64,000 bases of DNA, taken from Saccharopolyspora gregorii. GTDB taxonomy: Bacteria; Actinomycetota; Actinomycetes; Mycobacteriales; Pseudonocardiaceae. Location of the stretch: NCBI RefSeq assembly GCF_024734405.1, contig NZ_CP059556.1:2852001-2916000 (forward strand), read 5' to 3'. This document shows positions 27,853 to 44,093 of the stretch, piece by piece. The first letter of the stretch is position 1. Each line of letters starts with the position of its first letter. Made by a program: the position numbers and the translations under genes. The notes under the pieces are model-generated. The model did not search any database, had not been told where the DNA came from, and saw only the letters and a program-made list of their open reading frames with translations.

Positions 27853-30800
27853 TCACTCGGAGGTGTCAGCCGGGCGGCGAGTTCCGGGAACGCCGGGGAA
27901 CGGGCGCGGATCGATGGAGATCTCCTCCATCCGCTTGCGGTAGAGCTCGTAGCGCCGCCGCGCCTCGCCGAAGCGTTCCGCGCGCAGCAGGGTGGCGACC
28001 AGGTCGAGGTGCGCCTCCTCGTCGTACTGGTCGTCGCGCAGCAGCCGCAGCGCGAACCGCGCCACCCGGTCGGTGTCGCCCTCGTCGCGGGAGCGCCGGG
28101 TCAGCGCCCGCAGCAGCGCGGCGTGCGTGGTGCGCAGCTCGTCGGCCAGCGCGTCCGCCCACTCCTGGTACGGGTCGTCCTCCAGGAAGTCGCCGGTGTA
28201 GGCGGCCTCGGCGTCCAGCAGCAGCGCGGTCGCGGCGGGGGAGTCCTCGCGGTCGGCCTGCAACGCCCGGTCGGCGAGGGCGAGGAACGATTCGACGTCG
28301 ATGCGCACGCACCTCGGGTCGAGACCGACCGTGCCGGTCTCGCTGGTGCGCAGCACCGATCCCGCGGCCGGGCCGGAGGTGGCCAGCACGTCGCGCACGG
28401 TGGACAGCAGCACCGAGAGCCGGTTGCCCGCGCGCACCGGGTCCACCTCCGGCCACAGCAGTTCCATCAGCTCTTCGCGGCGCATCGGGCGCCGCTTGGC
28501 GACGAGGATCTTCAGCAGGTCGCGGGCCTTGCGGGACTGCCAGGCCGCGCGCGGCACCGGCACCCCCGCGTGCTCGATCCGGAACACGCCGAGCGCGCGC
28601 AGCAGGACCGGCGGCGCCAGCCGGGCGACCGCGGCCAGCGGGCCGGCGGCGGCGCGGGCGTCGGGGGCGGCACCGTGCTCCAGCAAGGTGCGTTCGGCGA
28701 GTTCGGCCACCGCGCCCGCCCCGCCGGGCGCCGGGGCCAGGCGGTGGCGCAGCAGCAGGGCCTGCGCCTCGTCGAAGGCGAAGCCGCCGTCGCGCCAGAT
28801 CTGCACCGCCTCGTCCAGCGCGGGCCCGTGCACCAGCGGATCGGTGGCGGTGACGGCGGTGAGCGCGAGCGCTTCGGCCAGCCCCGGCTCGTCCCCGCGG
28901 GCGCGGGCCTGCTCGGCGGCGAGCGCCGCGTCCGCCCTGGCCGGTTCCGCGTCCCCCGCCTCCCAGGAGATCCAGCCGCGGGTGAGCAGCGCGCGCACCT
29001 CGTGCAGGTGTTCGCCGAGGTCGATGGCGCGTTGGGCGAGCAGCCGGGCGCGCGCCGGGTCGTCGGCGGCGCGGGTGCGGGCGAGCCCGACCAGTGCGGA
29101 GCTCGTCGCGAGCACGTCGCGCGCGGGTTCGGCCAGCGACAGCGCCTCCTCGTAGGCGGAGCGGGCGCGTTCGAGCCTGCCGCGCAGGCGGTGCACGTCG
29201 CCGCGCACGCACAGCGGCCACGCGAGGAACCCGGTGCCGAAGCGGCCGAACACCTCGCAGGCCGTGTCCACCGCGACGGTCGCCTCGTCGAACCTGCCGA
29301 GCCTGGTCAGCGCGTGGGCGCGCTGGGTGAGCGCGTGCGCGCGCAGCAGCGGGTCGTGGTGCTGCTCCGCGGTCCGCAGCGCCGCGTCGGCCTGTCCCAG
29401 CGCCGCGCCGGGTTCGCCGGATTCGGTGCGGTGCAGCGCGCGCAGCACGTGCAGCCTGCCGAGGTGCGCGTCGGCGGCGTCGTCCGCGGCGGCGAACCAC
29501 GCGGTGCGCGCCGCGCGCTGGTCGCCGCGGGCCGCGGCGAGCACGGCACCGGCGAGCGCGGCGACCGGTGCGGTGCGCGGGTGACCGCGCTGCTCGGCGA
29601 TCTCGGCGGCCCGCCGCGCCTCCTGCTCGCCGCGGGCGGTGTCGCCGGTGAGCCGGTGCGCCAGCGCGGCGGTCGCGTGCAGCCGCACTTCGTCGGCCGG
29701 ATCGCCCGCGGTGCCCGCGGCGGCGGCGCAGGCGGCGAGCGCCTCGGCGGGTTCGGCCCTGGCGAGCGCGGCGTCGGCGATCCGCCACGCCAGGCCGGGT
29801 TCGGCGGGGTCACCGGCGCGGGCCCAGTGCGCGGCGGCTTCCGGCCACCGTCCGCGCAGCCGGTGCGCCTGCCCGACCACGCGGGCGATCCGCTGGTCGT
29901 GCTGCTCGCCGAGGAGGGTGGCGGCGTCGAGCACGACGTCCACGTGCCCGTCGTCGAGCAGCCGGGCGCCCGCCTCCACCAGCAGCGCGGCGCAGCGCTC
30001 GGTCTCGCGGGCCGCGACGAGGTGCCGCAGCGCGCGTTCGTGCCTGCCCGCGCGGTGGTGCTCGTCGGCGGCCTGCCGGTGCAGCGCGGTGCGGACCTCG
30101 GGGGTGACGGTGCGCGGTTCGGCCAGGAACTCCGCGAGCGGCGGCACCAGCGCCCACCGCCCGGTCGAGGCGGGCCGCAGGAGTCCCCGCCGGGCCAGGT
30201 CCGTGAACACCCCGCCCTGTTCCTCGTGGGTGACGTCGCCGAGCACGGCCAGCCGGTGCAGCGCGTGCCGCGCCCGCTCCGGTTCGCGGTCGAGGACTTC
30301 TTCGGCGAGGTACGGGTGGAACCGGGTGGCGGGTGGCAATCCGCCGCCGCGCGGTTCGGGCACGGCGCGCAGCGAGTCGATGGCCCGGCACACCGCGGCG
30401 GGCCAGCCGCCGGTGCGTTCGCCGAGCTCGTGGGCCAGCGCGATGTCCGCGGTGCCGAGGCAGCGCTCGATGAGCTCGGCGATCTCGTCGGCGTCGAAGG
30501 CGAGCAGCCCGGCGTCGATCTCGCTGACCTTGCCCTGCCCGCGCAGCCGTTCCAGCGAGAACGGCGGTTCGTGCCGGGACAGCAGTACGATCCGCAGCCG
30601 CGGGGGAGCGCTCCGGCACAGGTCGGCGAGGAGCGCCGCCGCGTGCTCCCCGGCCTCGTGCAGGTCGTCGACGACCAGGTGCAGGTCCACCGGCAGCTCG
30701 CGCAGCCACTCTCGGACGGCACCGCGGTCGGGTTCCGGGACGGGGCCGGGCAGGTGCGGGCGAGCGGCGTCGACGAGCGTCGCCAGCAGCCGTCCCGCGT

Positions 30801-30993
30801 CGTCCCCGGCCCCCTCGGGGAACCACCAGGCGGTGCCGCCCGCGGACGCCGCCCAAGCGCGGACCGCGGTGGTCTTGCCCCAGCCCGCCGCCGCGATCAC
30901 CAGGCAGACCCGGTTGCGGGTGGCGGTGGCGAGCGCGTCCGCCAGCACCGGGCGCGCGATGGTGCTCGTGCCGTGCCGGTCTCGACCTCGCAT
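27853..30993 (-). CDS. Large BTAD/SARP regulator with STAND-ATPase and TPR region
   Basis: 1046 residues in three parts. The N-terminal about 300 residues are a MalT/NB-ARC-like ATPase with Walker A AAAGWGKTTAV and Walker B LHLVVDDLHE. The middle is a long TPR/ARM-like helical array. The last about 250 residues hold an OmpR-type DNA-binding wing (LRALGVFRIEHAGVPVP, SRKARDLLKILVAKRRPMRR, EELMELLWPE) followed by the BTAD helical domain. The order (ATPase first, BTAD last) is the reverse of AfsR. Such proteins act as pathway or global activators. The start ATG at 30993 is the only good one. Confidence 0.85.
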   Translation of the reverse strand: MRGRDRHGTSTIARPVLADALATATRNRVCLVIAAAGWGKTTAVRAWAASAGGTAWWFPEGAGDDAGRLLATLVDAARPHLPGPVPEPDRGAVREWLRELPVDLHLVVDDLHEAGEHAAALLADLCRSAPPRLRIVLLSRHEPPFSLERLRGQGKVSEIDAGLLAFDADEIAELIERCLGTADIALAHELGERTGGWPAAVCRAIDSLRAVPEPRGGGLPPATRFHPYLAEEVLDREPERARHALHRLAVLGDVTHEEQGGVFTDLARRGLLRPASTGRWALVPPLAEFLAEPRTVTPEVRTALHRQAADEHHRAGRHERALRHLVAARETERCAALLVEAGARLLDDGHVDVVLDAATLLGEQHDQRIARVVGQAHRLRGRWPEAAAHWARAGDPAEPGLAWRIADAALARAEPAEALAACAAAAGTAGDPADEVRLHATAALAHRLTGDTARGEQEARRAAEIAEQRGHPRTAPVAALAGAVLAAARGDQRAARTAWFAAADDAADAHLGRLHVLRALHRTESGEPGAALGQADAALRTAEQHHDPLLRAHALTQRAHALTRLGRFDEATVAVDTACEVFGRFGTGFLAWPLCVRGDVHRLRGRLERARSAYEEALSLAEPARDVLATSSALVGLARTRAADDPARARLLAQRAIDLGEHLHEVRALLTRGWISWEAGDAEPARADAALAAEQARARGDEPGLAEALALTAVTATDPLVHGPALDEAVQIWRDGGFAFDEAQALLLRHRLAPAPGGAGAVAELAERTLLEHGAAPDARAAAGPLAAVARLAPPVLLRALGVFRIEHAGVPVPRAAWQSRKARDLLKILVAKRRPMRREELMELLWPEVDPVRAGNRLSVLLSTVRDVLATSGPAAGSVLRTSETGTVGLDPRCVRIDVESFLALADRALQADREDSPAATALLLDAEAAYTGDFLEDDPYQEWADALADELRTTHAALLRALTRRSRDEGDTDRVARFALRLLRDDQYDEEAHLDLVATLLRAERFGEARRRYELYRKRMEEISIDPRPFPGVPGTRRPADTSE

Positions 30994-31513: not shown

Positions 31514-34500
31514 TTGACGGTGTCGATGAACCGCGGGACCGGGCCGGCCGCGGGCACCACCCCCATCACCGATCTGCTCGCGCACTCGCCGGGGTCGACG
31601 GCCGCGGCGGCGGCGCTGGCCCGAGCCCTGCTGGAGCCCGATCGGACGGCCACCCGGCCCGGCCCGGGAGCAGCGGGAGAACCGGCCGTCCCGGAGGCCG
31701 TGGCCGACGGGCGAACGGAACCGGAGCAGGCCGCCGGTGCCGCGCCCGCCGCCGTGTTCGACTCCGGGCCGGCCGCGCCGGAACGCACCCTGCTCGACGT
31801 GTTCGCCGCGACCGCGCGCGCCCACCCGGACGCGCTCGCGCTGGACGCGGGCGAGCGGACCCTCACCTACCGGGAGCTGGCGGAGCGGGTCCGGGTCGCG
31901 GCGCGCGAGCTCACCGACCTCGGCGTCGGCCGCGGCGACCGGGTCGGCGTCCGCGTCGAATCCGGTACCGCCGAGCTGTACCTGGCGGTGCTGGCGGTGC
32001 TCGCCGCGGGCGCGGCCTACGTGCCGGTGGACGCCGACGACCCGCAGGAGCGCGCGGACCTGGTGTTCGGCGAGGCCGGGGTGTGCGCGGTGCTGACCGG
32101 CGGTGCCCCGGAACTGCTCGGCACGCCGGGTGGCCGCGGTGGCGCGCCGACCCCGGACGACGACGCGTGGATCATCTTCACCTCCGGTTCCACCGGCACC
32201 CCGAAGGGTGTGGCGGTGCCGCACCGCGCGGCGGCGGCGTTCGCGGACGCCGAGGCCCGGCTGTTCCTCCCCGACGACCCGATCGGGCCGGGCGACCGGG
32301 TGCTGGCGGGGCTGTCGGTGGCGTTCGACGCGTCCTGCGAGGAGATGTGGCTGGCGTGGCGGCGCGGCGCCTGCCTGGTGCCCGCGCCGCGGTCCTTGGT
32401 GCGCACCGGCGCGGACCTGGGGCCGTGGCTGGTGCGGCGGCGGATCAGCGTGGTCTCCACCGTGCCGACGCTCGCGGCGCTGTGGCCGCCGGAGGCGCTG
32501 GCCGAGGTGCGGTTGCTGATCTTCGGCGGGGAGGCGTGCCCGCCGGAGCTCGCCGAGCGGCTCGTCGCCGACGGCCGCGAGGTGTGGAACACCTATGGCC
32601 CGACCGAGGCGACGGTGGTGGCCTGCGCGGCGCGCCTCGACGGCGCGGGACCGGTGCGGATCGGGTTGCCCCTGGACGGGTGGCGGCTCGCCGTCGTGGA
32701 CGCCGCGGGAAGCCCGGTCCGGCCGGGCGAGCAGGGCGAACTGGTCATCGGCGGCGTCGGGCTGGCCCGCTACCTGGACGCGGCCAAGGACGCGGAGAAG
32801 TTCGCGCCGCTGCCCTCGCTGGGCTGGGAGCGGGCCTACCGCAGCGGTGACCTGGTCCGCGCCGACCCGGAGGGGCTGGTGTTCGTCGGTCGCGCCGACG
32901 AGCAGGTCAAGCTCGGCGGCAGGCGCATCGAGCTCGGCGAGGTCGACGCCGCGCTGCAGGCCCTGCCCGGGGTGGCGGGCGCCGCCGCGGCGGTGCGCCG
33001 CACGAAGGCGGGCGGCGAGCTGCTCGTCGGCTACCTGGCGGCGGAGGACTCGTTCGACACCGACGACGCGGTGCGGCGGCTGCGCGAGGTGCTGCCCGCT
33101 TCGCTGGTGCCGCTGCTCGCGGTCGTGGCCGAGCTGCCGACCCGCACCTCCGGCAAGGTCGATCGGGCCGCGCTGCCCTGGCCGCTGCCGAGCCGGGAGC
33201 CCGCGGCGGACGGCTCGCTGTCGGTCACCGAGTCGTGGCTGGCGGGGGAGTGGGCGGAGGTCCTGGGCATGCGCCCCGACGGCCCGCGTGCCGACTTCTT
33301 CGCCCTCGGCGGCGGCAGCCTCGCCGCCGCGCAGCTGGTCACCAGGTTGCGCACCCGGCACCCGCAGGTCTCCGTCGCCGACGTCTACCAGCACCCGCGC
33401 CTCGGCGAGCTGGCCGCGCAGCTCGACGAGCTGGACGCGGTGACCGCCGACCGGCGCGAGATCGCCGAGGTGCCGCGGCGGATGGGCTGGGCGCAGCTCG
33501 CGATGCTGGTGCCGCTGAGCACGCTCACCGGGCTGCGCTGGACCGCGGTGCTGGCCGCGGGCGGCACGCTGCTGGCGGCGGCGGGAGCGCCGTGGGCGCC
33601 GCGGGTGTCCTGGTGGCTGCTGCTGGTGGCGTGGCTGGTGCTGTTCAGCCCGCCGGGCCGGATCGCGCTCGCGGTCAGCGGCATCCGGCTGCTGCTGCAC
33701 CGGGTCCGGCCGGGCACCTACCCGCGCGGCGGCGGCGTGCACCTGCGGTTGTGGGCCGCGCAGCAGTGGGACCAGCGGTGCGGGGCGAGCGCGGTCTCCG
33801 GCGCGTTCTGGACCACGCACTACGCGAAGGCGCTGGGCGCGAAGATCGGCGACGACGTCGACCTGCACTCGCCGCCGCCGGTCACCGGCTTGCTCAAGAT
33901 CGGTCGCGGGGCGGCGGTCGAACCCGAGGTGGACCTGTCCGGGTACTGGGTCGACGGCGACATCGTCCACATCGGACGGATCAAGGTGGGCGCGGGGGCG
34001 CGGGTCGGCGCGCGCAGCACCCTGCTGCCGGGCGCGCACGTCGGCAAGGGCGCGGAGGCCGCCGCCGGATCGACCGTGCACGGCGTGATCCCCGCTCGGC
34101 AGCGCTGGTCCGGTTCGCCCGCGGCCCGCACCTCCGGTTCCCCGGCGAAGTGGCCGGCGCAGCGGGCGCCGCGCTCCCGCCGGTGGAGCGCGGTGTACGG
34201 GCTGACCTCGGTGCTGTTCGCGCTGGTGCCGGTGCTGGCGGTGCTGCCCGCGCTGCCCGTGGTCGTCCCCGAGCTGCTGGCGGCGGCCACCGCGCAGGAC
34301 GCGGTGCGGCGGGTGCTGCCGCTGGTCCCGGCCGCCACGGCCGCCTGCTTCGGCGGCTACGCGCTGCTGGTGCTGGTGGCGGTCCGCACCCTCGGCATCG
34401 GGTTGCGCGAGGGGCACCACCCGGTGCACGGCCGGATCGGCTGGCAGGTGTGGGCTTCGGAACGGCTGATGGGCATGGCGCGCACCGCGCTGTTCCCGCT

Positions 34501-35563
34501 GTACGCCAGCACGTTCACGCCGACGTGGCTGCGGCTGCTCGGCGCGAAGGTGGGGCGCGGCACGGAGATCTCGACGGTGCTCGCGGTGCCGAAGATGACG
34601 AAGGTCGCCGACGGCGCGTTCCTCGCCGACGACACGATGGTCGCCACCTACGAGCTCTCCCGCGGCTGGCTGCACGTCGCACCGGCCCGCATCGGCAAGG
34701 GCGCGTTCCTCGGCAATTCGGGGATGACCGCGCCGGGCCGCTCGGTGCCGAAGCGGGGGCTGGTCGGGGTGTTGTCCTCGACGCCGCGGAAGGCGAAGAA
34801 GGGTTCCTCGTACCTGGGCCTGCCACCGATGCCGCTGCGGCGCGCGCAGGTCGCCGCGGACGCCGAGCGCACCTTCGACCCGCCGCTGCGGCTGGTGTTC
34901 GCCCGCGCGCTGGTGGAGCTGTGCCGCATCGTGCCGGCGATGGTGTCGGCGGCGCTGGCCGTGCTGGTGCTCGGCGGCCTCGCCGAGGTGTGGCGGGTCG
35001 CGGGCCCGTGGGCGGCGGCGGTGCTGTCCGGGGTCGTGCTGCTGGTGGCGGGCGTGCTGGCCTGCGCGGTGACGACGGCGGCGAAGTGGCTGCTGATCGG
35101 CCGGTTCCGGGTGCGGCAGCGCCCGCTGTGGAGTTCCTTCGTGTGGCGCGGCGAGCTCGCCGACACCTTCGTCGAGGTGCTCGCGGTGCCGTGGCTGGCG
35201 GGCCCGGCGACCGGCACCCCGCTGCTGTCGATGTGGTTGCGCACCATGGGCGCGCGCATCGGGCGCGGCGCGTGGGTGGAGACCTACTGGCTGCCCGAGG
35301 CCGACCTGGTGCGCATCGGCAGGGGCGCCGCGGTCAACCGGGGGTGCGTGGTGCAGACCCACCTGTTCCATGATCGGATCATGAGCATGGACGAGGTGGC
35401 GCTGGAGCAGGGCGCGACGCTGGGGCCGCACGGCATCGTGCTGCCCGGCGCGGCCATCGGCGCCCGCACCACCGTCGGCCCCGGGTCGCTGATCACCCGC
35501 GGCGACGCGGTGCCCGCGGATTCGCGCTGGTGCGGCAACCCGATCTCGGCGTGGCGGGCATGA
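31514..35563 (+). CDS. Pls/PosA-type membrane-embedded non-ribosomal peptide synthetase
   Basis: About 1349 residues. An adenylation domain (residues about 90-560: FTSGSTGTPKG, NTYGPTEATVV, YRSGDLVRADPEGLVFVGRA, PTRTSGKVDR) is followed by a carrier domain with LGGGSLAAAQL, the phosphopantetheine site being Ser602. Then come three repeats of two transmembrane helices plus a hexapeptide-type left-handed beta-helix/acyltransferase-like domain (about 657-880, 893-1115, 1130-1349). There is no condensation or thioesterase domain. This is the Pls/epsilon-poly-L-lysine-synthetase architecture, in which the C-terminal tandem domains link monomers through side-chain amines. Start is a TTG at 31514 or GTG at 31520 with GGAAGG upstream. 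Confidence 0.9.
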   Translation: MTVSMNRGTGPAAGTTPITDLLAHSPGSTAAAAALARALLEPDRTATRPGPGAAGEPAVPEAVADGRTEPEQAAGAAPAAVFDSGPAAPERTLLDVFAATARAHPDALALDAGERTLTYRELAERVRVAARELTDLGVGRGDRVGVRVESGTAELYLAVLAVLAAGAAYVPVDADDPQERADLVFGEAGVCAVLTGGAPELLGTPGGRGGAPTPDDDAWIIFTSGSTGTPKGVAVPHRAAAAFADAEARLFLPDDPIGPGDRVLAGLSVAFDASCEEMWLAWRRGACLVPAPRSLVRTGADLGPWLVRRRISVVSTVPTLAALWPPEALAEVRLLIFGGEACPPELAERLVADGREVWNTYGPTEATVVACAARLDGAGPVRIGLPLDGWRLAVVDAAGSPVRPGEQGELVIGGVGLARYLDAAKDAEKFAPLPSLGWERAYRSGDLVRADPEGLVFVGRADEQVKLGGRRIELGEVDAALQALPGVAGAAAAVRRTKAGGELLVGYLAAEDSFDTDDAVRRLREVLPASLVPLLAVVAELPTRTSGKVDRAALPWPLPSREPAADGSLSVTESWLAGEWAEVLGMRPDGPRADFFALGGGSLAAAQLVTRLRTRHPQVSVADVYQHPRLGELAAQLDELDAVTADRREIAEVPRRMGWAQLAMLVPLSTLTGLRWTAVLAAGGTLLAAAGAPWAPRVSWWLLLVAWLVLFSPPGRIALAVSGIRLLLHRVRPGTYPRGGGVHLRLWAAQQWDQRCGASAVSGAFWTTHYAKALGAKIGDDVDLHSPPPVTGLLKIGRGAAVEPEVDLSGYWVDGDIVHIGRIKVGAGARVGARSTLLPGAHVGKGAEAAAGSTVHGVIPARQRWSGSPAARTSGSPAKWPAQRAPRSRRWSAVYGLTSVLFALVPVLAVLPALPVVVPELLAAATAQDAVRRVLPLVPAATAACFGGYALLVLVAVRTLGIGLREGHHPVHGRIGWQVWASERLMGMARTALFPLYASTFTPTWLRLLGAKVGRGTEISTVLAVPKMTKVADGAFLADDTMVATYELSRGWLHVAPARIGKGAFLGNSGMTAPGRSVPKRGLVGVLSSTPRKAKKGSSYLGLPPMPLRRAQVAADAERTFDPPLRLVFARALVELCRIVPAMVSAALAVLVLGGLAEVWRVAGPWAAAVLSGVVLLVAGVLACAVTTAAKWLLIGRFRVRQRPLWSSFVWRGELADTFVEVLAVPWLAGPATGTPLLSMWLRTMGARIGRGAWVETYWLPEADLVRIGRGAAVNRGCVVQTHLFHDRIMSMDEVALEQGATLGPHGIVLPGAAIGARTTVGPGSLITRGDAVPADSRWCGNPISAWRA

Positions 35564-36882
35564 CGGCCGCACCGGGAGCGGACCGCTCGACGGACTCGTA
35601 CCTGCCGGAGCACGGCAACGGCGGCTACCGGGTGGAGCACTACGACCTGGACCTGGACTACCGGGTCGGCCCGAACCGGCTGTCCGGGGAGGCGGTGCTC
35701 ACCGCGGTGGCCGGGCAGGCGCTGTCCGCGTTGAGCCTGGACCTGGCGGACCTGCGGGTGCGCCGGGTGACCGTCGACGACCGGCCCGCGAAGTTCACCC
35801 ACCGCGCGGGCAAGCTGCGCATCCGGCCGGCGGCGCCCATCGCCGGCGGCGCCCGGTTCCGGGTGCGGGTGCGGTACGCCGGGAACCCGAGCCCGATCCG
35901 CGGCCGGTGGGGCGACATCGGCTGGGACGAGCTGACCGAGGGCTCGCTGGTGGCCGGCCAGCCGGTCGGGGCGCCGTCTTGGTTCCCGTGCAACGACCAC
36001 CCGTCCGACAAGGCCGCCTACCGGGTCGCGGTCACCGCCGACACCGGGTTCGAGGTGCTGGTCACCGGAGACCTGGTGTCCCGGCGCGCGGCGGGCGCGG
36101 GCACCGAGCGGTGGGTCTACGAGCGGGCCGAACCGACCCCGACCTACCTGATGGGCGTGCACACCGGCCGCTACCGGGAGGTGCCGCTGGCCACCGGCCC
36201 GGTGCCGCAGCGCGCCGCGGTGCCGCCGCACCTGGTGGCGCCGTTCCGGGAGATGTTCGGCCGCCACGACGAGATCATGCGGGTGCTGTGCGGCCTGTTC
36301 GGCCCGTACCCGTTCGCCGAGTACGTCGTGGTGATCACCGACGACGAGCTGGACGAGCCGATCGAGGCGCAGGGCATGGCGGTGTTCGGCCGGAACCTGC
36401 TCGACGGCACCCGCACCTACGAGCGGCTGGTGGTGCACGAGCTGGCACACCAGTGGTTCGGCAACAGCCTCACCATCGGCGATTGGCGCGACATCTGGCT
36501 CAACGAGGGCTTCGCGACCTACGCGGAGTGGCTGTTCGCGGAGGCCGTCGGCGAGCGCACCGCCGCCGAGCACGCCCGCGACTGGCACCGGCGGATGCGG
36601 CAGGCCGAACCCGGACTGCGGGTGGCCGATCCGGGCGTGGCGCGGCTGTTCGACGAGGGCGTGTACAAGCGGGGCGCGCTGGCGCTGCACGCGCTGCGCG
36701 TCGAGCTCGGCGAGGAACCGTTCTTCGGCCTGCTGCGCCGCTGGGCCGCCGAGCACCGGCACGGCACGGTGCGCACCGCCGAGTTCACCGCGCTGGCCGA
36801 GGAGATCGCCGGTCGTTCCCTGGCCGAGTTCTTCGCCGGCTGGCTGCACGGCACCGAACCGCCCGCGGACCCCGGTTTCTGA
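35560..36882 (+). CDS. M1-family zinc metallopeptidase coupled to the Pls-like gene
   Basis: 440 residues starting at an ATG that overlaps the NRPS stop (ATGA). The zinc motif HELAHQWFGNS starts at His293 (HExxH: His293, Glu294, His297) with the distal Glu316 in WLNEGFATY. The exopeptidase motif is IEAQGMAVFG, as in bacterial aminopeptidase-N-like M1 members. No signal peptide is visible, so it acts in the cytoplasm or at the membrane face. In epsilon-polylysine producers, a Zn-dependent M1-type aminopeptidase (Pld) degrades the polymer for self-protection; the translational coupling here suggests the same for the local product. That is an inference. Confidence 0.88.
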   Translation: MTAAPGADRSTDSYLPEHGNGGYRVEHYDLDLDYRVGPNRLSGEAVLTAVAGQALSALSLDLADLRVRRVTVDDRPAKFTHRAGKLRIRPAAPIAGGARFRVRVRYAGNPSPIRGRWGDIGWDELTEGSLVAGQPVGAPSWFPCNDHPSDKAAYRVAVTADTGFEVLVTGDLVSRRAAGAGTERWVYERAEPTPTYLMGVHTGRYREVPLATGPVPQRAAVPPHLVAPFREMFGRHDEIMRVLCGLFGPYPFAEYVVVITDDELDEPIEAQGMAVFGRNLLDGTRTYERLVVHELAHQWFGNSLTIGDWRDIWLNEGFATYAEWLFAEAVGERTAAEHARDWHRRMRQAEPGLRVADPGVARLFDEGVYKRGALALHALRVELGEEPFFGLLRRWAAEHRHGTVRTAEFTALAEEIAGRSLAEFFAGWLHGTEPPADPGF

Positions 36883-43106: not shown

Positions 43107-44093
43107 TCACCCAGCGTGCCCTGGGTGCCGTACGCAGCGGAATCCGAGGTTGCCGCCGGAGCTGTCCGGGGTGTTGGAGGTGCGGGCCGCGACGCGGTAG
43201 CGGTTGCAGTACGAGTCGTGGCACAGGTAGGAGCCGCCGCGCATCACCCGGTTCTCGCCCTCGGCGGGCCCCTGCGGATCGGTGGCGCCCGCCGCGGCGT
43301 GCTCGGTGCCCCAGCGGTCCGCGCACCACTCCCACACGTTGCCCGCCGCGTTGTGCAGCCCGAAGCCGTTCGGCGGGAACGCGTCGGCGGGCGCGGTGCC
43401 CCGGTGGCCGTCCTCGGCGAGGTTCTTCACCGGGAACGTGCCCTGCCAGATGTTGCAGCGGTGCTCGCCGTCCGGGGTGAGCTCGTCGCCCCACGGGTAG
43501 CGGCGCTGCTCCAGGCCGCCGCGCGCCGCGAACTCCCACTCCGCCTCGGTGGGCAGCCGCGCTCCCGCCCACCGGCAGTACGCGACCGCGTCGTGCCAGG
43601 ACACGTGCACCACCGGGTGGTCGGCGCGGTCGTCGACGTCGGAACCGGGGCCTTCCGGCCGGTTCCAGGTCGCGCCTTCCACGCCGCACCACCAGGGGGT
43701 CTGCTCCGGCCGGGGCGCCGAGCGCCGCAGCGAACCGGGCAGGAACGAGGCGAAGACGTAGGACCAGCCGAAGCGCTCGGCGTCGGTGGTGAACCCGGTG
43801 TCGGCGACGAAGCGGGCGAACTCGGCGTTGGTGACGGCGAGCGCGCTGATCTCGAACGGGCTCACCCGCACTTCGCGCACCGGGCCTTCGCCGTCCTGCG
43901 GGAACCCGTCCGCGTCGGCGGTGCCCATCAGGAACGCGCCGCCGTCGAGCGCGATCCACCGGTGCTCGACGGTCTCGGCCGCGGCGCCCGGCGCCGGGTC
44001 CGGGGCGTCGCCGGCTTCGCGGGTGCGCCCGGGCGCGCAGCAGCCGTCGTGCCGCTCGGAGGTCTTCGGGTCCGCTTCGCTCACGGCGTCCAC
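43107..44093 (-). CDS. Formylglycine-generating enzyme (sulfatase-modifying)
   Basis: 328 residues from a GTG at 44093. The FGE-type core is clear: [66 protein letters not shown]. The active-site cysteine pair is [14 protein letters not shown], Cys291 and Cys296, with the five-residue spacing of copper-dependent true FGEs rather than EgtB or SUMF2. It converts Cys in CxPxR of a sulfatase to formylglycine. No sulfatase gene with a CxPxR site is seen in the window, so the substrate is elsewhere. The N-terminal 40 residues include a CC pair and are poorly conserved. Confidence 0.9.

What the first reader, a model, noticed from the sequence alone, without database searches (positions are those of the whole stretch)
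31514..36882. Pls/PosA-type isopeptide homopolymer locus with a coupled M1 hydrolase
The 1349-residue protein has A and T domains followed by three TM/hexapeptide modules and no condensation or thioesterase domain, the architecture of epsilon-poly-lysine synthetase and relatives that make side-chain-linked amino-acid polymers. Its stop overlaps the start of an M1 zinc peptidase. In polylysine producers a Zn-type aminopeptidase degrades the product. The pair therefore looks like a polymer-making and polymer-cleaving unit, with a large BTAD regulator transcribed divergently from it. The product is not known from the sequence.
Basis: partly seen in the sequence, partly recalled or inferred. Interest (0 to 1): 0.85.

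Follow-up and report, generated by a model that had tools for sequence, protein, structure and literature searches.

The report
Saccharopolyspora polylysine synthetase and hydrolase operon
This looks like the ordinary actinobacterial gene pair that makes the antimicrobial polymer epsilon-polylysine and codes for an enzyme thought to cut it up for self-protection; the pair is already described in other bacteria.

Summary
Window 31514-35563 (+) encodes an A-T-(TM hairpin + beta-helix)x3 protein, overlapped by a two-domain M1 zinc peptidase (35560-36882). It is best read as an orthologue of the known pls-pldII operon. The protein passes the curated "Pls/PosA family" model (719 bits, cut-off 423). 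Its closest solved structure is the A domain of epsilon-poly-L-lysine synthase, 7wew (668 bits). The pocket DAESIGTVVK is shared by all 113 Pls-type proteins aligned, so L-lysine is the predicted substrate. An M1 gene lies downstream in the best 80 of 80 named loci and in 21 of 22 full-length Pls of a phylum draw. In five genomes with A domains 87-94% identical to 7wew it is 1401-1413 bp, 1404 bp in three; published pldII is 1404 bp. Papers describe pls with this peptidase as an operon and a polylysine cluster in Saccharopolyspora sp. NFXS83. The BTAD regulator is not part of the conserved unit (3 of 118 loci). First reading supported; novelty low; product and peptidase substrate are predicted, not shown.

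The parts
31514..35563 (+). pls orthologue: single-module NRPS-like epsilon-poly-L-lysine synthetase (A domain, T domain, three TM-hairpin/beta-helix modules), 1349 aa
   Evidence: TIGR02353 719 bits over a 423.1 cut-off; 7wew A domain 668 bits; pocket DAESIGTVVK; C-terminal model
31784..33193 (+). adenylation domain (residues 91-560), predicted L-lysine pocket
   Evidence: alignment to 7wew; tree puts it in one clade with 7wew, apart from six A domains of other architecture
33236..33421 (+). thiolation (carrier) domain, residues 575-636, with the GGGSL serine
   Evidence: PF00550 48 bits; GG(G/S)SL in the eight commonest variants, 94 of 124 rows
33434..35560 (+). three tandem membrane-hairpin plus beta-helix modules (residues 641-1349), the presumed peptide-bond-forming part
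   Evidence: TIGR02353 721.8 bits on this piece alone; AlphaFold2 model pLDDT 84.9; Foldseek gives only weak matches, first to serine acetyltransferases
35560..36882 (+). pldII orthologue: two-domain M1 zinc peptidase, start ATG overlapping the pls stop by 4 nt (alternative GTG at 35530)
   Evidence: PF01433 and PF17900; closest solved structures are the D. radiodurans two-domain M1 peptidase; in one clade with M1 genes next to other pls genes, 100/100 support

Best explanation
This is a Saccharopolyspora-type orthologue of the pls-pldII operon. Pls adenylates L-lysine in the A domain and loads it on the T domain. [quoted passage not shown] that mechanism is described for Streptomyces Pls (passages) and inferred here. 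The overlapping M1 peptidase hydrolyses the polymer and most likely protects the producer. Shown here: architecture, lysine-type pocket, conserved coupling, and that the M1 gene belongs to the pls-linked clade. Inferred: the product, the peptidase substrate, export, and expression.
For: TIGR02353 'Pls/PosA family' over cut-off. Closest PDB chain is epsilon-poly-L-lysine synthase 7wew, 668 bits against 404 for the next, with the same pocket residues in the alignment. Code DAESIGTVVK in 113 of 113 Pls-type rows (window, 80 named loci, 32 unnamed loci, chosen by similarity or M1 adjacency); the other 11 of 124 rows are A domains of other architecture or pieces without an A domain. A-domain tree of 43 rows: the 37 Pls rows, 7wew and the window among them, are one side of a branch with 100/100 support against 6 outgroup rows. 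M1 downstream on the same strand in 80 of 80 named loci, the first aligned codon within 115 nt of the pls stop in 78 and 634-664 nt away in 2. In an even draw of 396 genomes of the phylum, 21 of 22 full-length Pls have an M1 match within 400 nt downstream, against 0 of 5 short TIGR02353 proteins. In five genomes with A domains 87-94% identical to 7wew the M1 gene can start at a 4-nt GTGA overlap and is then 1404 bp in three, 1401 and 1413 bp in two; published pldII is 1404 bp, next to pls and translationally coupled (passages of PMC9223678). M1 tree of 53 rows: 33 pls-linked rows plus 3 check rows form a 100/100 clade apart from 17 unlinked rows, two of them paralogues from this genome. In the genus sample 4 of 6 genomes, this one included, have both genes; the other 2 lack the synthetase, and their best M1 match is only of paralogue strength. 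PMC8117764 passages: C. variabile pls and a peptidase gene form an operon as in Streptomyces, and that Pls made epsilon-PL in S. coelicolor.
Against: No product was measured; C. variabile has a functional pls yet gave no polymer in the culture conditions tried (passage). One of 22 full-length Pls in the phylum draw (G298) has its M1 on another contig. The M1 protein has no membrane or signal-like segment by hydropathy (highest value 1.5; 2 of 81 in the set reach 1.6), although PldII is reported on the outside of the membrane. No record named S. albulus was compared; the equation of this M1 gene with pldII rests on place, overlap, length and clade. Identity to the five 7wew-like genomes is only about 56-57% for Pls and 42-44% for M1, and within the Pls clade 7wew and its kin form a subgroup separate from the one that holds the window. 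Reports disagree on what PldII does to chain length.
Confidence: 0.9

Rival explanations
1. The synthetase is of the Pls type but makes another isopeptide polymer, such as epsilon-poly-beta-lysine, poly-ornithine or a mixed chain.
For: PosA and related enzymes of similar architecture make other polymers; pocket codes do not separate all related substrates.
Against: The pocket has Ala at position 2, which the PosA paper gives for lysine activators, against Met in PosA and Phe in PDAP synthetase; same pocket residues as 7wew; the A domain falls in one clade with 7wew.
Confidence: 0.06
2. The M1 enzyme is a general aminopeptidase that is co-transcribed by chance and does not act on the polymer.
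For: Closest solved relative is a two-domain M1 peptidase of D. radiodurans with no known link to Pls; polymer-cleaving activity cannot be read from sequence.
Against: M1 downstream in 80 of 80 named loci and 21 of 22 in the phylum draw; clade of its own against unlinked M1 paralogues; S. albulus pldII in the same place degrades epsilon-PL.
Confidence: 0.05
3. The BTAD protein is a dedicated pathway regulator and the unit is a three-gene system.
For: Divergent orientation with 520 nt between the starts; kept in the three closest relatives.
Against: Found in 3 of 118 loci, which also share the other neighbours on both sides, so plain synteny explains it; not found in L107, Saccharopolyspora shandongensis.
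Confidence: 0.1

Closest known systems
pls-pldII operon of Streptomyces albulus (epsilon-poly-L-lysine synthetase and epsilon-PL-degrading enzyme II)
   Same: gene order, overlap of the genes, A-T-three-module architecture, lysine pocket, downstream peptidase of about 440-470 aa
   Different: identity to the five 7wew-like genomes about 56-57% for Pls and 42-44% for M1; another genus; no product data here
Corynebacterium variabile pls with its peptidase gene (PMC8117764, passages)
   Same: operon of pls and a peptidase gene; single-module synthetase
   Different: that synthetase was shown to make epsilon-PL on heterologous expression; this one was not tested
Saccharopolyspora sp. NFXS83 NAPAA cluster, OOZ19_07305 (PMC10145562, passages)
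   Same: same genus; the NFXS83 Pls is 81% identical and has the same neighbours on both sides
   Different: reported there as an antiSMASH hit to the synthetase; the passages that I saw do not mention the peptidase
PosA of Acinetobacter baumannii (delta-poly-L-ornithine synthetase)
   Same: same curated family name and overall architecture
   Different: pocket DMEHNGTVSK against DAESIGTVVK
Two-domain M1 zinc peptidase of Deinococcus radiodurans (6a8z, 6iff)
   Same: two-domain M1 fold, TM-scores 0.81-0.84 by query length
   Different: 31-32% identity in the fold alignment; any link to Pls there was not looked for

Membership tests
epsilon-poly-L-lysine synthetase (Pls) | region scoring over the Pls/PosA family model TIGR02353 | tested here: met
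   719 bits, cut-off 423.1
epsilon-poly-L-lysine synthetase (Pls) | A and T domains, no condensation or thioesterase domain | tested here: met
   Pfam list at E 0.01 holds AMP-binding, PP-binding, Hexapep and a sub-threshold AMP-binding_C only
epsilon-poly-L-lysine synthetase (Pls) | six membrane helices around three tandem acetyltransferase-related domains | tested here: met
   model shows three helix pairs, each followed by a beta-helix; the plain hydropathy scan marks five of the six helices at its cut-off, and one false segment in the A domain
epsilon-poly-L-lysine synthetase (Pls) | L-lysine-specific pocket | tested here: met
   same pocket residues as 7wew; a prediction, no assay
epsilon-poly-L-lysine synthetase (Pls) | makes epsilon-poly-L-lysine | not testable with these tools
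   needs expression and mass spectrometry
[quoted passage not shown]
   4-nt ATGA overlap possible at 35560-35563; M1 downstream in 80 of 80 named loci; coupling of translation itself not tested
[quoted passage not shown]
   HEXXH and distal Glu in 81 of 81 rows, the window included
[quoted passage not shown] albulus | tested here: inconclusive
   same clade as the M1 of three of the five genomes with A domains 87-94% identical to 7wew; length there fits the published 1404 bp; no record named S. albulus was compared
[quoted passage not shown]
   no signal-like or membrane segment by hydropathy in the window protein, nor in three M1 proteins of the 7wew-like genomes
[quoted passage not shown]
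   needs an enzyme assay
PosA (delta-poly-L-ornithine synthetase) | ornithine pocket DMEHNGTVSK | tested here: not met
   pocket is DAESIGTVVK (PosA code)

The most novel reading that the evidence does not exclude
In this lineage the pair makes a lysine polymer whose length or linkage differs from epsilon-PL, with the M1 enzyme working as a chain-trimming rather than a protective enzyme, under control of the lineage-specific STAND-TPR-BTAD regulator.
Probability: 0.06. Interest if true: 0.45.

Novelty: new member of a known kind. Interest (0 to 1): 0.15.

Why it matters
It adds one more likely epsilon-polylysine locus, in a genus where one has been listed before. The wider count is of some use: the hydrolase gene stays with the synthetase in 21 of 22 full-length cases of the phylum draw and in 80 of 80 named loci, which fits a need for self-protection, and the pocket is the same in the 113 Pls-type proteins aligned. 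Neither changes what is known about the system.

Tried and rejected
Ordinary hexapeptide transferase: rejected, because the C-terminal piece alone scores 721.8 bits on TIGR02353 and at most 58.3 bits on acetyltransferase models, all under their cut-offs. PosA-type ornithine polymer: rejected on the pocket. BTAD regulator as a conserved part: rejected. Lysine-supply or export genes beside the pair: none recognised among 12 neighbouring ORFs scanned between 22264 and 47375, which include a MarR regulator, a 4-hydroxybenzoate 3-monooxygenase-like gene, an acyl-CoA ligase, hydrolases, an SDR, a homocysteine-synthase-like gene and a GGDEF/HD protein. The first Pfam scan of the regulator used the wrong strand and gave nothing; redone. 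A translation that ran past the regulator's start was uninformative. Two paper searches on homopolymer mining gave little: nothing specific, only the PosA paper.

Limits of the counts. The genome searches score only the few best candidates of each genome (2, 4), so second or third copies can be missed; the adjacency counts were made by me from the printed tables. In the family draw 150 of 220 genomes are over the TIGR02353 cut-off, but adjacency was not counted there because the tables are cut. The tree warns of long outgroup branches (L089).

Papers, what I saw: PMC10522769, PMC9223678, PMC8117764, PMC10145562, PMC8506220 and PMC9205021 by passages only; all others in search listings only. 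The 2010 pldII paper is not held; what is said of it comes from passages of other papers. The positions of the ten-residue code and the classical M1 motif are recalled; the residues were read by script.
Full report
What is there. The window lies in a 6.34-Mb actinobacterial chromosome. The first ORF, 31514-35563 (+), encodes 1349 aa with an adenylation domain, a carrier domain and, from about residue 660, the TIGR02353 region named 'Pls/PosA family non-ribosomal peptide synthetase' (719 bits, cut-off 423.1). There is no condensation or thioesterase match. It is the only match of the genome over that cut-off.

Anatomy. The A domain is closest to the solved A domain of epsilon-poly-L-lysine synthase 7wew: 668 bits, the next chain 404. 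The ten code positions are the same in the alignment. Read by script the code is DAESIGTVVK, and it is the same in all 113 Pls-type rows of 124 rows aligned (window, 80 named loci, 32 unnamed loci); the other 11 rows are A domains of other architecture or pieces without an A domain. The set was chosen by similarity or by M1 adjacency, so it says little about distant members. The PosA paper gives Ala at the second position for lysine activators, Met for PosA and Phe for PDAP synthetase. The C-terminal 709 residues, modelled with 27 relatives, came out at mean pLDDT 84.9: three repeats of two long helices followed by a beta-helix. Against solved structures this gives only weak matches, first to serine acetyltransferases (best E 2.4e-4). 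In the sequence search no listed chain (60 of 77 shown) covers that part of the protein.

The second gene. P0002 is an M1 peptidase of two domains. The model (pLDDT 87.3) matches the D. radiodurans two-domain M1 peptidase best (TM 0.81-0.84, 31-32% identity). HEXXH and the distal Glu are present in 81 of 81 proteins. Where classical M1 enzymes have GxMEN (recalled), at least 60 of 81 have P-[IVL]-E-A-Q-G. An in-frame ATG at 35560 gives a 4-nt overlap with the pls stop; a start with this overlap is possible in 40 of 81 loci.

Conservation of the pair. The alignment was built from Pls proteins that have an M1 neighbour, but the loci were ranked on the synthetase alone. All 80 have the M1 downstream on the same strand; its first aligned codon lies within 115 nt of the pls stop in 78, and 634-664 nt away in two (Williamsia). 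A less selected sample is the even draw of 396 genomes of the phylum: 27 matches over the TIGR02353 cut-off, of which 22 are full length (open frame over 1250 aa) and 5 short. Of the 22, 21 have an M1 match within 400 nt downstream on the same strand; the exception is G298, where the M1 lies on another contig. None of the 5 short ones has one nearby. From the M1 side, 22 matches reach E 4e-110 or better, and 21 of them are the pls neighbours; the next is at E 7e-95, in a genome without a TIGR02353 match over the cut-off (counted by me from the tables, in which only the 2 or 4 best candidates per genome are scored). In the genus, 4 of 6 sampled genomes, this one included, have both genes; 2 lack the synthetase and show only M1 matches of paralogue strength. 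A tree of 53 M1 proteins puts the 33 pls-linked ones (28 taken from the window and the named loci, 5 Streptomyces) plus 3 check rows (G298, and two close M1 genes whose context was not examined) on one branch with 100/100 support, apart from 17 unlinked ones, two of them from this genome; one of those two (L197) has a very long branch.

Link to pldII. Passages of PMC9223678 say that pldII of S. albulus is 1404 bp long, adjoins pls, is translationally coupled to it, degrades epsilon-PL and serves self-protection. In a draw of 373 Streptomyces genomes, 169 have an A domain matching 7wew at E 1e-120 or better; five are 87-94% identical to it. In those five the gene after pls is an M1 peptidase that can start at a GTGA overlap and is then 1404 bp long in three, 1401 and 1413 bp in two. 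Three of the five were put in the M1 tree and fall in the pls-linked clade. I therefore take the M1 gene of the window as the pldII orthologue. I could not compare it with a record named S. albulus, and the organism of 7wew was not shown by any search.

Tree of the A domains. Of 43 rows, the 37 Pls rows, 7wew and the window among them, are one side of a branch (100/100) against six outgroup rows with long branches. Inside, 7wew and the Streptomyces rows nearest to it stand apart from the larger subgroup of 31 rows (91/100) that holds the window. So this is the Pls clade, but not the closest kin of the studied enzyme.

What is known. PMC8117764 (passages) states that the C. [quoted passage not shown] coelicolor, while C. 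variabile itself gave none in the conditions tried. PMC10145562 (passages) lists an NAPAA cluster with an epsilon-PL synthetase homologue in Saccharopolyspora sp. NFXS83. PMC9205021 and PMC8506220 (passages) review the enzyme and the two degrading enzymes; the latter notes that loss of both had no effect on production or chain length in the 2010 work, whereas PMC9223678 reports longer chains on repression, so the role in length control is disputed.

The regulator. The divergent gene 27853-30993 (-) has an ATPase-like N-terminus, TPR repeats and a C-terminal BTAD domain. It is found in 3 of 118 fetched loci, L077, L078 and L103, which also share the other neighbours; it was not found in L107, Saccharopolyspora shandongensis. 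The unnamed loci, most about 10 kb long, show little of the upstream side, so a displaced copy could be missed there; the named loci mostly show 7 kb. Whether it acts on pls is open.

Verdict. It is a new member of a known kind, with low novelty. What remains to be shown is that the genes are expressed, that the product is epsilon-poly-L-lysine and that the M1 enzyme cuts it.

Noticed in passing
L088, L099, L091, L102 (and a similar A-domain protein in L089 7489-10947): Split versions in other actinobacteria: an A-domain protein next to a separate carrier-plus-TIGR02353 protein, pocket DIWQST(A/T)DDK, which has Trp where the diamino-acid activators have Glu; no M1 match at E 1e-20 in these loci. 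The substrate is unclear and may not be a diamino acid.
   Followed up: partly
L090 1797-6425: A full-length relative, 31% identical, with pocket DFECLSVVTK: Phe at position 2, as the PosA paper gives for PDAP synthetase.
   Followed up: no
L191 and L192 (G298): The one full-length Pls of the phylum draw without an M1 beside it; a pls-clade M1 sits on another contig of the same genome.
   Followed up: partly
L156 and L159 (Williamsia): The M1 open frame begins 268 and 430 nt after the pls stop (first aligned codon 664 and 634 nt) instead of overlapping it; what lies between was not examined.
   Followed up: no
window 27853-30993 (-): STAND-like ATPase, TPR and C-terminal BTAD regulator, with the domain order reversed against the usual SARP order (order recalled); kept only in the three closest relatives.
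   Followed up: partly
Streptomyces genomes G737, G826, G837, G880, G902, G932, G956, G963: Eight of 373 Streptomyces genomes show two Pls-type A domains each; in the five where both are listed, one is clearly nearer to 7wew than the other.
   Followed up: no
window 43107-44093 (-): FGE-sulfatase-type protein with weak resemblance to SenA and EgtB, below their cut-offs.
   Followed up: no
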